DNA from: Solirubrobacterales bacterium
Lineage (GTDB): Bacteria > Actinomycetota > Thermoleophilia > Solirubrobacterales > Solirubrobacteraceae
Reading direction: 5' to 3'
Length of the DNA stretch: 64,000 nucleotides
NCBI GenBank assembly: GCA_947474595.1
Contig: CANJIV010000007.1
Location: 1-64,000 of the forward strand
Shown here piece by piece: positions 50,890 through 55,893 of this stretch; within the stretch, counting starts at the first letter, position 1; every line of letters starts with the position of its first letter. The notes under the pieces are model-generated. The model ran no database searches. It was given only the letters and a program-made list of their open reading frames with translations, and was not told where the DNA came from. The position numbers were made by a program, and so were the translations under genes.

Positions 50890-51009
50890 GCCCGACGCGG
50901 CCGCGCTCCGATCTGTCAGTGTTTAGGGTCGAACACGTCTCCCTAACAATTGCTTAACCGCAACTTCTGTGGTGCTGCGGTGTCAGACTCATTAGCGAAG
51001 CCTTTGCAA

Positions 51010-52518
51010 ATGGAAGTCTCCTCCCTTAAATCCCCCGTCTTACCTGCCCTCAACGGGCTCTCTCCGCTACTCCGGTTGGCTCCAGACGACCGCCTTATTG
51101 CGATGATCCGCCGCGGCAACCAAGGTGCTTTCGAGGCTCTGGTCAATCGCTACCAATCCCGACTGCTCTCTTTTTGCCGCCACATGCTGCGTTCTCAAGA
51201 AGATGCTGAGGACGTACTACAGGAGGTCTTTGCATCCGCCTACAGCGCTATCAACGCCGACGAGCGACCGATCAACGTGCGTCCATGGCTATACCGCATC
51301 GCCCGCAACCGCTCCCTCAACCATCTCCGCCGGGTCCAATCGATTGGGGTCGACTCGATGGACATCCACCTCGCAGACCACGGCGCCTCGACCGCAGACA
51401 AAGTTCACAAGCGCGAAGAGTTCCGTCTTCTACTCGCAGATGTCCAGACACTCGCCGAGACTCAACGCACCGCCCTCCTCTTGCGTGAGATCGACGCACT
51501 CTCCTACGACCAGATCGCCGAGGTTATGGAGACTACGGTCCCAAGCGTTAAGTCGCTGCTGGTGCGTGCACGAATTGGCCTAGCCGAAGCATCCGAGGCA
51601 CGCGGCCTCGACTGCGACGCCGTTCGCCTTGAGCTTGCAGAAGTCGCTGAAGGTCTAATGAAAATCACTGCGCCCGTCCGACGTCATCTAAAAGACTGCG
51701 ATCGCTGCTCAGGGTTTCAGGGGCAACTCAAAGCCAACAACAAAGCCTTGGCGATGGTCTTTCCGTTTGGGGCATTTCTGCTCGTTAAGAAATTCCTACT
51801 CACCCATTTCGCCACGAGCGTTAGTGCCGGCAGCGGCGGGGCTGCCACCACGACTGGTGCGGCGGCTGGCGCTGGCGGCATTGCGGCTGGCGGAACTGCT
51901 GTGGCAGGTGGTACTGGGGCGGGCATCTTCTCCGCCGGCATCGCGACCGTAGCCACTAAGACGGCCGCAACACTTGCCGCCGCAGCGATCGTGACCGGCG
52001 GTGCTGCCGAGGTACGTCACCTTGCAGTCAACCAGTCGGCGCATCAGGCAGTAACTGTAATTGCCTCTGCGACACCAGCCGTCGCACCGGTTAAGGCCAA
52101 GCCCGTCGCCCTCAAGCCCAAAAAACCAGTCGTTGTGACGGTCGCCGCGGCGCCAGTTCCCGCAGCGATTCTCTCCATGCCGGTAACCGTTGCCCCCGCG
52201 GCGGAGCCCGTTGCCCTTGCGCCGAGCACCGCCGAAGTTCCCACCGTGCCGCCAGCCACTGCTCCTGAAGTAACCGAGACAGTCACCGAGACAACCGTCT
52301 TGCCTACGGATGTCACCGCGGAGATTACTGCGACAACTACTACTACCGCGACGGAGCCCGTCGCTTCTGGCGAGCTCGTCAACGACACGCCTAGCGAGCT
52401 CGTCGCCGACACGCCTAGCGAGACGATCTCAGATCCGCCAGTGGCCACCGAACCTCCCGCGGGTGAAGATTTGACACCAGTAGAAGGCGCCTCGGCACCC
52501 GTAGATCCAGCCGCCTAG
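51010..52518 (+). CDS. ECF sigma fused to anti-sigma-like zinc finger
   Basis: A 502-residue protein. Sigma region 2 (about 25-95: FEALVNRYQSRLLSFCRHML, DAEDVLQEVF, RPWLYRIARN) and region 4 (about 130-190: LREIDALSYDQIAEVMETTVPSVKSLLVRAR) are complete. Then comes a zf-HC2-like zinc site: a Cys in GLDCDAV and HLKDCDRC, the H-x3-C-x2-C of anti-sigma factors. A hydrophobic, Gly/Ala-rich part (about 250-350) may enter the membrane, followed by a long Pro/Thr/Val tail with an 8-residue repeat (ELVNDTPS, ELVADTPS). The start is uncertain; the frame is open to 50950. Confidence 0.8.
   Translation: MEVSSLKSPVLPALNGLSPLLRLAPDDRLIAMIRRGNQGAFEALVNRYQSRLLSFCRHMLRSQEDAEDVLQEVFASAYSAINADERPINVRPWLYRIARNRSLNHLRRVQSIGVDSMDIHLADHGASTADKVHKREEFRLLLADVQTLAETQRTALLLREIDALSYDQIAEVMETTVPSVKSLLVRARIGLAEASEARGLDCDAVRLELAEVAEGLMKITAPVRRHLKDCDRCSGFQGQLKANNKALAMVFPFGAFLLVKKFLLTHFATSVSAGSGGAATTTGAAAGAGGIAAGGTAVAGGTGAGIFSAGIATVATKTAATLAAAAIVTGGAAEVRHLAVNQSAHQAVTVIASATPAVAPVKAKPVALKPKKPVVVTVAAAPVPAAILSMPVTVAPAAEPVALAPSTAEVPTVPPATAPEVTETVTETTVLPTDVTAEITATTTTTATEPVASGELVNDTPSELVADTPSETISDPPVATEPPAGEDLTPVEGASAPVDPAA
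52372..52419 (+). repeat. In-frame 24-bp tandem repeat
   Basis: Two 24-base units differing at two positions encode ELVNDTPS and ELVADTPS in the tail of the sigma-fusion protein; a third, degraded unit (ETISDPP) follows. Confidence 0.7.
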
Positions 52519-52535: not shown

Positions 52536-52814
52536 TCACTCCACGCCAGTTGAAAAGATGGCCTCGAGGTCGTGCCTAGAGAAGGCCTCGAATGCGACAA
52601 GCGTCTGAGTCTTTTCCACTCCAGAAAGTTGTCCGATTGTCATCGTGATCACGTCGGCCAGCTTCTCGTGGCGTGGCACCCGCACGATCGCCACGAAGTC
52701 CCAGTCGCCAGTCACCGAATAAGCCTCGGCCACTCCCTCAACGTCAGCCAACCTCTGGCCGAGCGAAACCATCGCAGTACGGTCGGCTTGGATCAGCACG
52801 ATCGCCGTAGTCAT
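52536..52814 (-). CDS. Stand-alone Lrp/AsnC ligand-binding domain
   Basis: A 92-residue protein that is only the RAM effector domain of Lrp/AsnC regulators: TAIVLIQADRTAMVSLGQRLADVEGVAEAYSVTGDWDFVAIVRV, with the conserved GDWD motif. It lacks the DNA-binding helix-turn-helix, so it may bind amino acids and join other Lrp proteins. It overlaps the metallo-beta-lactamase-fold gene by ATGA and is co-transcribed with it. Confidence 0.85.
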   Translation of the reverse strand: MTTAIVLIQADRTAMVSLGQRLADVEGVAEAYSVTGDWDFVAIVRVPRHEKLADVITMTIGQLSGVEKTQTLVAFEAFSRHDLEAIFSTGVE

Positions 52815-53485
52815 CGGCTATATGTCTCGCCTGGGTCGAGCACGACGACCTCTGATGCCGTATCCGCTTCGACGTCGGACTTAAAGGCCATTACGTCGGT
52901 CTCGATCGGCGGAAAGGTGTTGTAGTGGCAGGGAATAACCGTCGCTGCTCCAATAAGGCCAGCGGCGACAGCTGCGTCGTGGCGGTCCATTGTGTAGTGG
53001 CCACCGATACAGATCAACGCGACATCAATTGGCGTGCGGCGTCCGACTAGGGCCATGTCCGAGAACAGCGCAGTGTCGCCTAGGTGATAGACCGTGACCC
53101 CCCCGATCGTGATCAGAAGGCCAGATGGAGTGTTGACGGTGCCCTTGGCCGTTGTCGAGGTATGCCAAGCTGGCACGAGCTTAACTGTCCCCCAGTCGTA
53201 AGTGACGGTGCCGCCAAGATTAGGGTCGTGGAACTCAATACCCTCTTCGCCTAGCTCACGGGCCACCTCGGTCATCGATGTGACCGGCGCACCCGTGCGC
53301 TTCGATATCGCTACCGCATCGCCGACGTGATCTTCGTGGCCATGGGTGATCAGAATATCGGTGGCCTCTAGCTCATCAGCCGTCACTGCTGCCTTTGGAT
53401 TGCCGGTAAGGAATGGGTCAACCAAGACAACGGTCTTCCCGTCTGTGATCTCAAAGGCACTGTGGCCCAGATAGCGGATCTGCAT
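52811..53485 (-). CDS. UPF0173 metal-dependent hydrolase
   Basis: A 224-residue metallo-beta-lactamase-fold hydrolase of the UPF0173 type. Metal ligands: HGHEDH motif (ILITHGHEDHVGDA), His in PAWHTST, Asp in HLGDTALF and His in VIPCHYNTFP. The opening MQIRYLGHSAFEI is characteristic. Substrate not established for the family. Its ATG lies two bases after the stop of the upstream gene, and GAGGAG in that gene's end serves as Shine-Dalgarno sequence. Confidence 0.9.
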   Translation of the reverse strand: MQIRYLGHSAFEITDGKTVVLVDPFLTGNPKAAVTADELEATDILITHGHEDHVGDAVAISKRTGAPVTSMTEVARELGEEGIEFHDPNLGGTVTYDWGTVKLVPAWHTSTTAKGTVNTPSGLLITIGGVTVYHLGDTALFSDMALVGRRTPIDVALICIGGHYTMDRHDAAVAAGLIGAATVIPCHYNTFPPIETDVMAFKSDVEADTASEVVVLDPGETYSR

Positions 53486-53487
53486 CT

Positions 53488-53832
53488 CTACTTCTCCTCT
53501 TTGATGGTGTGTAAGTCTCTGGCCAACGCGAAGCCAACGGCAACGCCGACGAGCATGCTCATCCGTGTCTCTTCGGCGACCAGCGTACCTACGGCGACAA
53601 GGCGTGTGTCGATGTCGGCGTGGCCGGCTGCCTTAAGTAGTTCGGCCTCGTGGGCCGCACCGAACCAGCCGCCACTATTAAGCGCGGAGTTCAAGATCCG
53701 CTGCAGCTGAGGCGCTGCTCGGGCGACAAGATCCTCGGCCAGCTGAAGTCGTGCTGGGTCGTCGAGGCCAGCCACAGCAGCGTCAAGCTGCTCGTCGGTA
53801 TACACGTCTTGCGGCGCAGGTGAGTCGGGCAT
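53488..53832 (-). CDS. Conserved hypothetical protein (114 aa)
   Basis: A 114-residue, mostly helical protein. The N-terminal half is acidic (VYTDEQLDAAVAGLDDPARLQLAEDLV), the middle has LNSALNSGGWFGAAHEAELLKAAG, and the end MSMLVGVAVGFALARDLHTI could be a short membrane-touching helix. It heads a three-gene unit with UPF0173 and Lrp-domain genes and seems leaderless. No family recognised. Confidence 0.6.
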   Translation of the reverse strand: MPDSPAPQDVYTDEQLDAAVAGLDDPARLQLAEDLVARAAPQLQRILNSALNSGGWFGAAHEAELLKAAGHADIDTRLVAVGTLVAEETRMSMLVGVAVGFALARDLHTIKEEK

Positions 53833-53895: not shown

Positions 53896-54666
53896 TCAAC
53901 CGCCAACGCGGCGACCCTGGCGTTTGGCAAGGGCCAATCCGAGCAGTAGGCCCGCCGCGGCCCCTCCCAGCGCCGCTAGCCAACTTGCCTCGGGTGCGGC
54001 AAGAGGCATGACAGCGACTACAGCGGCGACTATGGCGGCTCCGAGCAAGTCAGAGTCACTCTCCTGGTTGCGATAAAGCAACCGCAGGTCTGGGACTGCC
54101 CACGCTGCTAGTAGTGCGAGCGCCATCCCGTTGCCACCAGCAGACAACTCAGCTGGCCCGACAAAAGCGGCAAGCGCCATACCGGCCACCGCTCCAGCTA
54201 GTGCAACCGCGACCACCGCTGCCGAGCCGCTGCGTCGCTCGATTAGCCAACCGAAGATCGCCACCGTACCAAGTGCAGCAAGCTGGTAACCAGCGCTGTC
54301 GTAGGCAAATGGCGCGCTCACCAGTCGCCACCACTGGCCGTTGGGAGGTCCGAGGATGACAATTTCGGAAAACCCAACCGCACCCGATTTCCAGGCAATC
54401 GAAACCAAGATCGCGGCGAGGATCAGCGTGAAGGTCGCGTAGGGAAGCGCGTCGGGGCGGATGCCTGGTAGTTCACCTCTTCGCAACGGCCCAAGCGAGG
54501 TTCGCCGCGCGCGCTTGGGTTTGGGTGGCGTGATCTGGCCCTCGCGGTCAAGCTTTGGAGCGCGCTTGCGTAGCCGCTTGCCGCAGTAGGGACACTCTGT
54601 GACGTACGGGCTGGCTTGAGAGCCGCAGTTCTTACATACGACGAAGAGATCTGGCCCGCTTGACAT
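53896..54666 (-). CDS. Rhomboid-fold pseudoprotease with zinc ribbon
   Basis: A 256-residue membrane protein. Residues 11-28 form a zinc ribbon (CKNC...CPYC), a basic linker follows, and six hydrophobic segments run from about 77 to 250 in a rhomboid layout, including the WWRLVSAPF motif of loop 1 and LGGAAAGLLLGLAL of the last helix. The catalytic residues are missing: the GxSG serine is Asn179 (AGGNGM), the helix-6 histidine is Ala232 (LAALGG) and the HxxxN of helix 2 is absent. It should bind or guide membrane proteins rather than cut them. Apparently leaderless. Confidence 0.75.
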   Translation of the reverse strand: MSSGPDLFVVCKNCGSQASPYVTECPYCGKRLRKRAPKLDREGQITPPKPKRARRTSLGPLRRGELPGIRPDALPYATFTLILAAILVSIAWKSGAVGFSEIVILGPPNGQWWRLVSAPFAYDSAGYQLAALGTVAIFGWLIERRSGSAAVVAVALAGAVAGMALAAFVGPAELSAGGNGMALALLAAWAVPDLRLLYRNQESDSDLLGAAIVAAVVAVMPLAAPEASWLAALGGAAAGLLLGLALAKRQGRRVGG

Positions 54667-54764: not shown

Positions 54765-54770
54765 TATATT
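54765..54770 (+). promoter_or_regulatory. Probable -10 box of the aldolase gene
   Basis: TATATT, 38 nt before TTG 54808; the -35 region (GTCGCA at 17 nt) is weak. Predicts a leader of about 30 nt with a strong ribosome site. Confidence 0.45.
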
Positions 54771-54795
54771 GCCGGTCAACGTAACTCTCGACCTC

Positions 54796-54801
54796 CGGAG
54801 G
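54796..54801 (+). promoter_or_regulatory. Shine-Dalgarno site fixing a TTG start
   Basis: CGGAGG lies six bases before TTG 54808. It selects this TTG over an in-frame TTG at 54769, which has no ribosome site and lies over the -10 box. Confidence 0.65.
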
Positions 54802-54807
54802 AATCCC

Positions 54808-55893
54808 TTGGCCAGCGCCGAGCTCACCACAAGCCGCTTAGAAGAACTCCTCGGCGACGATGCCGCGTCACTGCTCAATCACAAGTGCACGACGCTGCCG
54901 GCCGATCAGCTTCATCTCCCAGGACCCGATTTTATTGATCGCGTCTGGCTAGATTCCGACCGCAACTCGTCGACAGTTCGCGCCATGAACTGGATGGCCA
55001 ACAGTGGCCGTCTAGCCGGCACCGGCTACTGCAGCATCCTGCCTGTCGATCAAGGTATTGAGCACAGCGCTGGAGCGAGCTTCGCGCCCAACCCGATCTA
55101 CTTTGACCCGGCCAACATCGTCGAATTGGCGATCGAAGGCGGCTGCAACGCCGTCGCCTCAACTGTCGGCGTTCTCGGTGCAGTCAGCCGCCGTTACGCA
55201 CACAAGATTCCCTTCATCGTCAAGCTCAACCACAACGAGCTGATGACCTACCCCAATGGAGCCGACCAGATCATGTTCGCCAGCGTGCAGCGCGCTTGGG
55301 ACATGGGAGCGGTAGCCGTCGGGGCAACTATCTACTTCGGCAGCGAAGAGAGTGACCGCCAGATCGTCGAAGTGGCCGCCGCCTTCGAAGAGGCCCATCG
55401 CTTGGGGATGTTCACGGTCCTCTGGTGCTATCTGCGCAACCCGGCCTTCAAGGCGGACAAGGACTACCACGTCGCTGCTGACCTGACCGGGCAGGCCAAC
55501 CACCTCGGCGTCACGATCCAAGCCGACATCATCAAGCAGAAGCTGCCAGAGAACAATGGTGGCTTCCTGGCTCTCAACAAGGATGGCGCGTCTTACGGGA
55601 AGTTCAGCCCACTGATGTACGACGAGCTCAGCACAGACCACCCGGTCGACCTCTGCCGATATCAAGTAATTAACTGCTATCTCGGTCGCAGCGGACTGAT
55701 CAATAGCGGCGGCGCCTCCTCTGGCGCGACCGATCTCGCCGAGGCCGTGCGTACTGCGGTCATCAACAAGCGGGCGGGCGGGACCGGGTTGATTAGTGGC
55801 CGCAAGGCCTTCCAGCGGCCGATGGCTGAAGGGATCGAGCTGCTCAATGCGATCCAAGATGTCTACAAATCGTCAGATGTGACTGTCGCCTAA
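54808..55893 (+). CDS. fbaB: Class I fructose-bisphosphate aldolase (FbaB type)
   Basis: A 361-residue DeoC/FbaB-family aldolase, about the length of E. coli FbaB. It contains [50 protein letters not shown], with the phosphate and Schiff-base regions of the fold (a Lys in PFIVKLNHN), and [10 protein letters not shown] near the C-terminus for phosphate binding. It would cleave fructose 1,6-bisphosphate to triose phosphates, in glycolysis or gluconeogenesis. TTG start set by a strong Shine-Dalgarno sequence. Confidence 0.85.

What the first reader, a model, noticed from the sequence alone, without database searches (positions are those of the whole stretch)
53896..54666. Rhomboid fold with all catalytic residues replaced, plus an N-terminal zinc ribbon
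The GxSG serine is Asn179 (AGGNGM), the catalytic His is Ala232 (LAALGGAAAG) and the loop/helix-2 HxxxN is gone, while WWR in loop 1 and the GxxxG of the last helix remain. This is the pattern of inactive rhomboids (iRhom, derlin), which bind and route clients. A bacterial pseudo-rhomboid with a treble-Cys ribbon is little described.
Basis: partly seen in the sequence, partly recalled or inferred. Interest (0 to 1): 0.55.

Follow-up and report, generated by a model that had tools for sequence, protein, structure and literature searches.

The report
Dead rhomboid with cytosolic zinc ribbon
This soil-bacterium gene encodes a membrane protein built like a rhomboid protease but without its cutting residues; close relatives in the same bacterial order share the loss and keep a zinc-binding head on the cell's inside, so it probably binds or hands over other proteins rather than cutting them.

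Summary
ORF 53896-54666 (-) encodes a 256-aa protein with a Pfam Rhomboid domain (54 bits, cut-off 22.6) and an AlphaFold model that matches GlpG (Z 20.4 over 172 residues). Ser is Asn179, the catalytic His is Ala232, HxxxN is YxxxA. One correction: the N-terminal ribbon has four cysteines, not three.

The loss is not local. Orthologues occur in 74 of 76 same-order genomes searched. Among 83 non-redundant members none has the His and two have the Ser, so none has the dyad. All 39 other rhomboids used as controls, and 20 more from the phylum, keep Ser, His and HxxxN. Asn and Ala themselves are not fixed (60 and 19 of 83). The family is one clade. Its most conserved part is the zinc ribbon, and constraint has moved away from the outward active-site half.

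Best reading: an order-specific bacterial pseudo-rhomboid, a non-catalytic membrane adaptor with a cytosolic zinc ribbon. The closest functional precedent is the protease-independent FtsH-adaptor role of Bacillus YqgP. Clients and partners are inferred, not shown. A new small protein family (p114) usually follows it.

The parts
53896..54666 (-). Pseudo-rhomboid gene, 256 aa
   Evidence: ORF; Pfam Rhomboid 54 bits; structure model mean pLDDT 82.9, pTM 0.70; GlpG match
54556..54645 (-). N-terminal four-Cys zinc ribbon and its basic tail (residues 8-37; C11, C14, C25, C28, then RLRKRAP)
   Evidence: Pfam Zn_Ribbon_1 22.1 bits, under the cut-off of 25; four Cys in 82 of 83 members, and mean column entropy 0.53 bits against 2.06 for residues 76-250
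54445..54555 (-). Basic, poorly conserved linker (residues 38-74)
   Evidence: mean entropy 2.26; low pLDDT
53902..54441 (-). Six-helix rhomboid core (residues 76-255)
   Evidence: helices 76-93, 125-146, 148-169, 179-198, 207-223, 229-255; Z 20.4 to GlpG 4qo0
54274..54288 (-). Former HxxxN site: Y127xxxA131
   Evidence: His127 and Asn131 in 39 of 39 control rhomboids; in the family Tyr127 60 of 83 and Asn131 0 of 83
54130..54132 (-). Former catalytic Ser: Asn179
   Evidence: Ser in 39 of 39 controls; Asn 60 of 83, Ser 2 of 83 in the family
53971..53973 (-). Former catalytic His: Ala232
   Evidence: His in 39 of 39 controls; His 0 of 83, Gly 44, Ala 19 in the family
53488..53832 (-). p114: small all-helical protein of an undescribed family, next gene downstream; candidate partner
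   Evidence: downstream on the same strand within 3 kb in 37 of 42 non-redundant loci with 2.5 kb or more of flank; no Pfam hit at E 0.1; helical model pLDDT 88.5; no PDB match at E 0.001
52811..53485 (-). Metallo-beta-lactamase-fold hydrolase, same strand downstream
   Evidence: Pfam Lactamase_B_3 78.4 bits; same strand downstream in 32 of the same 42 loci
52536..52814 (-). Stand-alone Lrp/AsnC ligand-binding domain, end of the same-strand run
   Evidence: Pfam AsnC_trans_reg 57.6 bits

Best explanation
It is a bacterial pseudo-rhomboid: the rhomboid fold is kept, the Ser-His dyad and oxyanion residues are gone across the family, and a four-Cys zinc ribbon with a basic tail sits on the cytosolic side. 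Most likely it works as a membrane adaptor. The rhomboid core recognises transmembrane helices of client proteins without cutting them, and the cytosolic ribbon (perhaps with p114) engages a soluble partner, for example a degradation machine such as FtsH. Shown here: fold, loss of the dyad, family-wide retention, zinc-ribbon constraint, shift of constraint away from the outward half. Inferred: zinc binding, cytosolic orientation (basic N-terminus, GlpG topology), client binding, partner. The specific FtsH hand-off I put at about 0.2.
For: Rhomboid fold. No dyad in 83 of 83 non-redundant members, while 39 of 39 controls and 20 of 20 further phylum rhomboids keep it. Retained in 74 of 76 same-order genomes (union; G020 and G022 lack it), usually beside ordinary rhomboids (58 of 61 relatives show 2 or more Rhomboid places on whole-genome counts that include this one, G020 and G022 showing 1; place rows were cut off). 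Structural residues of the fold stay: E143 82 of 82, G147 82 of 82, G177 81 of 82, G235 81 of 82, G239 82 of 82 in the core alignment, where controls have them too. Ribbon entropy 0.53 against 2.06. Constraint on the outward half falls relative to controls, also with the five catalytic columns removed (p 5e-6 for all 39 controls, 1.2e-6 for the 27 non-GlpG-like ones; columns treated as independent). Precedent: Bacillus YqgP acts as an FtsH substrate adaptor independently of its protease activity, and its cytosolic N-terminal domain, which binds Mn/Zn, is needed (PMC7231995, passages). The own genome has two M41/FtsH-type proteases, which is common and so weak.
Against: No client, partner or phenotype is known. 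The ribbon is conserved far better than the membrane part, which fits a mere anchor just as well. FtsH is near-universal in bacteria, so its presence says little. The N179/Y127 pair is not a demonstrably co-evolving site (independent-pairs test not significant; only 4 pairs on starred branches). G020 and G022 do without the gene. Ribbon score is below Pfam's cut-off.
Confidence: 0.5

Rival explanations
1. The rhomboid core is only a membrane anchor. The working part is the cytosolic zinc ribbon with its basic RLRKRAPK tail, which binds RNA, ribosome, DNA or a soluble protein at the membrane.
For: Ribbon is by far the most conserved stretch (0.53 bits against 2.06) and survives in divergent members whose former active-site residues drift (L093-L097, L164, L165). 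Constraint inside the core leans to the inner half.
Against: An anchor does not need the rhomboid-specific residues E143, G147, G177, G235, G239, which stay almost invariant. Family-specific W113, W189, D206, R145 are also kept. Ribbon alone finds no convincing relative in the own genome (next best E 0.011 with a stop inside) or in PDB (best E 0.13, bL32).
Confidence: 0.27
2. iRhom-like regulator of the active rhomboids of the same cell: it competes for their substrates or forms mixed complexes with them.
For: Same-order genomes also code for rhomboids with full catalytic motifs. iRhoms inhibit rhomboid signalling in flies (PMC3149277, abstract in the listing).
Against: No genomic link between this gene and an active rhomboid: the neighbourhood holds p114, a metallo-hydrolase, AsnC-like, aldolase, nuclease. 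The own-genome active rhomboid lies on another contig.
Confidence: 0.1
3. A cryptic enzyme: Asn179 and Tyr127 form a new catalytic or ligand site in the old cleft.
For: Asn179 (60 of 83) and Tyr127 (60 of 83) are the majority residues.
Against: Neither is invariant; loss of Asn179 takes about 8 changes on the tree, of Tyr127 about 9. No family-wide acidic, His, Cys or Ser residue in the outward half; the near-invariant charged residues E143, R145, D206 sit near inner helix ends in the GlpG-like topology.
Confidence: 0.04
4. A decaying remnant without function.
For: Catalytic residues lost.
Against: Present in 74 of 76 same-order genomes, 35-57% identity with intact frames and strict ribbon conservation.
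Confidence: 0.01

Closest known systems
Bacillus subtilis YqgP (rhomboid protease and FtsH adaptor)
   Same: Bacterial rhomboid fold; a metal-binding cytosolic N-terminal domain is reported; a protease-independent adaptor role is reported (PMC7231995, abstract and passages)
   Different: YqgP keeps its catalytic Ser and cuts MgtE. Here the dyad is absent in every member; the N-terminal domain is a short four-Cys ribbon. I did not compare the N-terminal domains by structure.
Active actinobacterial rhomboids with an N-terminal zinc-finger-like stretch (own genome L001; controls in the class and phylum)
   Same: Same fold, cytosolic Cys-rich N-terminus, same cell
   Different: They keep GASG, HxxG and HxxxN. 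Their N-terminus resembles B-box zinc fingers (L001, 18.1 bits, under the cut-off of 24.1), not this ribbon. A B-box finger is also listed for mycobacterial rhomboids (PMC2989971, passage).
iRhoms (RHBDF1/2)
   Same: Rhomboid fold without catalytic residues; conserved cytosolic N-terminus; iRhom1 chain 9xy4 matches the model at Z 17.3 over 181 residues
   Different: Animal proteins with a large iRhom homology domain in loop 1; no zinc ribbon of this kind. GlpG is a better match (Z 20.4).
Derlins
   Same: Rhomboid fold without catalysis; membrane protein quality control; Derlin-1 chain 7czb at Z 11.6 over 163 residues
   Different: Eukaryotic, no zinc ribbon, clearly weaker structural match.
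Rhombosortase (TIGR03902)
   Same: Partial hit, 27.1 bits
   Different: Far under the curated cut-off of 84; catalytic residues absent.

Membership tests
Rhomboid superfamily (PF01694 fold) | Score above Pfam's curated cut-off | tested here: met
   54 bits against 22.6; 22 of 22 members of A1 hit at E 0.01 or better
Rhomboid superfamily (PF01694 fold) | Six-helix GlpG-like fold | tested here: met
   Z 20.4, 172 residues, 2.7 A
Active rhomboid protease | Ser in GxSG and His in the last helix | tested here: not met
   Asn179 and Ala232; dyad in 0 of 83 members against 39 of 39 controls
Active rhomboid protease | HxxxN in helix 2 | tested here: not met
   YxxxA; Asn131 in 0 of 83 members
Rhombosortase | NCBIfam TIGR03902 score over 84 | tested here: not met
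   27.1 bits
Rhomboid pseudoprotease (descriptive class) | Rhomboid fold with catalytic residues lost across orthologues | tested here: met
Rhomboid pseudoprotease (descriptive class) | Binds clients without cutting them | not testable with these tools
   needs experiment
iRhom | iRhom homology domain in loop 1 | tested here: not met
   loop 1 here is about 30 residues (94-124 in the model); the domain itself is known to me from the literature
Derlin | Membership by sequence (DER1 family) | tested here: inconclusive
   no DER1 hit listed up to E 1; structural match weaker than GlpG
YqgP-like FtsH adaptor | Physical and functional link to FtsH | not testable with these tools
   two M41 proteases in the genome show only that it is possible
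Zinc ribbon | Four Cys in CxxC...CxxC kept across orthologues | tested here: met
   82 of 83 (the exception L055 lacks the ribbon in the stretch read)
Zinc ribbon (PF13240 Zn_Ribbon_1) | Score over Pfam's cut-off of 25 | tested here: not met
   22.1 bits

The most novel reading that the evidence does not exclude
An ancient bacterial counterpart of Derlin/iRhom: a dedicated, permanently inactive rhomboid, kept throughout one bacterial order, that with p114 forms a zinc-ribbon-controlled membrane quality-control adaptor feeding membrane proteins to a soluble or AAA+ machine. It would be a pseudo-rhomboid branch specialised in bacteria independently of eukaryotes.
Probability: 0.25. Interest if true: 0.8.

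Novelty: new variant of a known kind. Interest (0 to 1): 0.52.

Why it matters
Rhomboid pseudoproteases are well studied in eukaryotes. For bacteria the papers I could search report a protease with an extra adaptor role (YqgP), not a permanently dead family (open-licence PMC library only). A family that has lost the dyad order-wide and kept the fold would separate the binding role of the rhomboid fold from its cutting role. It would also allow a direct test of the proposal in PMC7231995 that adaptor function came first and made pseudoproteases frequent.

Tried and rejected
Local mutation or sequencing error: rejected, since orthologues share the loss. Wrong fold: rejected. Reading Asn/Ala as fixed replacements: rejected, they vary. 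Ser retained by two members (L009, L027) as a sign of the ancestral state: not supported, they are sisters nested in the family, and they lack His too. Co-evolving N179/Y127 site: raw counts associate (48 both, 12 neither, 11 and 10 mixed, of 81 rows), but tree-aware pairs give no support. Ribbon relatives in the own genome and PDB: none convincing. p114 structural relatives: none at E 0.001. Rows dropped: first column counts (53 rows) held duplicate species and are superseded by the 83 non-redundant rows (97% identity), out of 126 family ORFs; L052 (frame runs off after residue about 223) was left out of the core alignment, L052 and L055 out; the tree used 43 of the 82 core rows (23 hand-picked unusual ones plus every third of the rest) and all 39 controls; its stem to the family is long (1.85), so the sister group is unsure. 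The 126 ORFs and 41 other rhomboids (39 distinct) come from whatever loci had been fetched, not from a random draw; control loci L129-L158 were those the tool ranked best for the Pfam model, which favours active-looking ones. Outside the order I read 7 loci of the class search (L085-L091) and 21 of the phylum search (L163, L174-L193), not all: 45 of 146 out-of-order genomes and 77 of 287 had some match. A dead rhomboid elsewhere is therefore not excluded. Count of paralogues per genome rests on the summary rows; its place list was cut off. Signature-protein paper PMC6544083 (passages) lists unnamed Thermoleophilia-specific proteins of unknown function, some of similar length to the two proteins here; I could not match accessions, so overlap is open.

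Full report
Observation. The ORF at 53896-54666 on the minus strand is 256 codons. Pfam gives Rhomboid over residues 110-248 at 54 bits (cut-off 22.6) and a zinc ribbon at 22.1 bits (cut-off 25) over residues 11-32. The catalytic Ser position is Asn179, the His position Ala232, and the HxxxN positions Tyr127 and Ala131. Loop 1 keeps WWR and the last helix keeps G235, G239, G243. The ribbon has four cysteines, not three.

Fold. AlphaFold2 on a 22-row alignment (A1) gives mean pLDDT 82.9, pTM 0.70 and six helices in rhomboid order. Foldseek's best PDB matches are GlpG structures (best E 3.6e-5); the second aligner gives Z 20.4 over 172 residues for GlpG, 17.3 for iRhom1 and 11.6 for Derlin-1. 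The fold is shared by all of these, so this shows rhomboid and not which function.

Is the loss family-wide? Yes. Orthologues are found in 59 of 61 relatives, and in all 53 same-order genomes of a 199-genome class draw (the 53 are counted from its rows, and unmatched rows begin with other orders). Together that is 74 of 76 different genomes; G020 and G022 have none even with the profile. The named loci are Solirubrobacterales/Thermoleophilia records. From all fetched loci I took 126 family ORFs, 83 after removing those 97% alike or more. At position 179: Asn 60, Ala 3, Gly 3, His 3, Ser 2, Ile 2, Tyr 2, Gln 2, Pro 2, Leu 2, Val 1, Asp 1. At 232: no His (Gly 44, Ala 19, Leu 5, Thr 5, Ile 3, others). 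Position 131: no Asn. The dyad is present in 0 of 83. One member (L031) has a His within a few residues of 232 but not in the column, and its 179 is Asn.

Controls. All 39 distinct other rhomboids in the fetched loci carry Ser, His and HxxxN in the matching columns. Twenty rhomboids from outside the order, taken from the phylum search, also carry all three motifs. The controls were mostly tool-ranked best hits, which favours active ones.

Origin. In a tree of 43 family and 39 control rows the family is one side of a branch with full support. The two Ser-bearing members are sisters inside it. The stem is long, so I do not name the sister group.

Where is the constraint? Mean column entropy is 0.53 bits for the ribbon with its tail (8-37), 2.26 for the linker and 2.06 for the membrane part. 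Splitting the core into inner and outer halves by the GlpG topology (my assignment), controls are tighter outside (1.61) than inside (2.04); the family is the reverse (2.05 and 1.83 at equal sample size). The difference remains without the five catalytic columns (p 5e-6) and with only the 27 controls outside the GlpG-like group (p 1.2e-6; columns treated as independent). Residues of the fold (E143, G147, G177, G235, G239) stay. New family-specific residues are W113, R145, W189, D206 and G243.

Neighbourhood. Downstream on the same strand lie p114 (53488-53832), a metallo-beta-lactamase-fold hydrolase and a stand-alone AsnC ligand-binding domain; upstream and divergent are an aldolase and a nuclease. 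Of 83 members, 42 had at least 2.5 kb of downstream DNA; p114 follows on the same strand within 3 kb in 37, immediately in 27, and the hydrolase in 32. p114 is order-specific in its own search: 28 of 33 same-order genomes, with two weak matches (E 7e-4 and 9e-4) among 116 others. It has no Pfam hit, a helical model with pLDDT 88.5, and no PDB match at E 0.001. Gene order suggests an operon; transcription was not tested.

Mechanism. Shown: fold, no dyad, long retention, ribbon constraint, shift of constraint. Inferred: the protein binds rather than cuts, its ribbon faces the cytosol and binds zinc, and it passes membrane clients to a partner. The published precedent is YqgP, which presents MgtE to FtsH without needing its own protease activity and whose N-terminal domain is needed (PMC7231995, passages read). 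The own genome has two M41 proteases, weak support only. The strongest rival is that the core merely anchors a working ribbon. The near-invariant rhomboid residues speak against a mere anchor but do not exclude it.

Literature. Five searches of the open-licence PMC library listed no description of a sequence-inactive bacterial rhomboid family or of this ribbon architecture. I read passages of PMC12615303, PMC7231995, PMC6544083 and PMC2989971. Subscription papers were not searchable, so this is not proof that none exists.

Verdict. A real, order-wide bacterial pseudo-rhomboid with a cytosolic zinc ribbon: a new variant of a known kind, with an adaptor role as the most likely but untested function.

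Noticed in passing
53488-53832 (-): p114: small helical protein, no Pfam family, largely restricted to the same order and usually next to the pseudo-rhomboid. In G039 it lies on another contig than the rhomboid, so it is kept even when unlinked.
   Followed up: partly
50950-52518 (+): ECF-type sigma factor with a long C-terminal extension holding an HxxxCxxC-like stretch (RRHLKDCDRC), a hydrophobic segment and an Ala/Pro/Thr-rich tail; it looks like a sigma factor fused to an anti-sigma-like membrane part. Relatives lie nearby on the opposite strand in several loci.
   Followed up: no
L093-L097, L164, L165, L098, L115: Divergent family members keep the ribbon while the former active-site residues drift.
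   Followed up: partly
G020 and G022: Two same-family genomes lack the gene and show a single Rhomboid match each; G020 is 92% complete.
   Followed up: partly
54769-55893 (+): DeoC/LacD-type aldolase starts about 100 bases from the pseudo-rhomboid start, divergent; in some same-order relatives only a weak (about 30% identical) match lies there.
   Followed up: no
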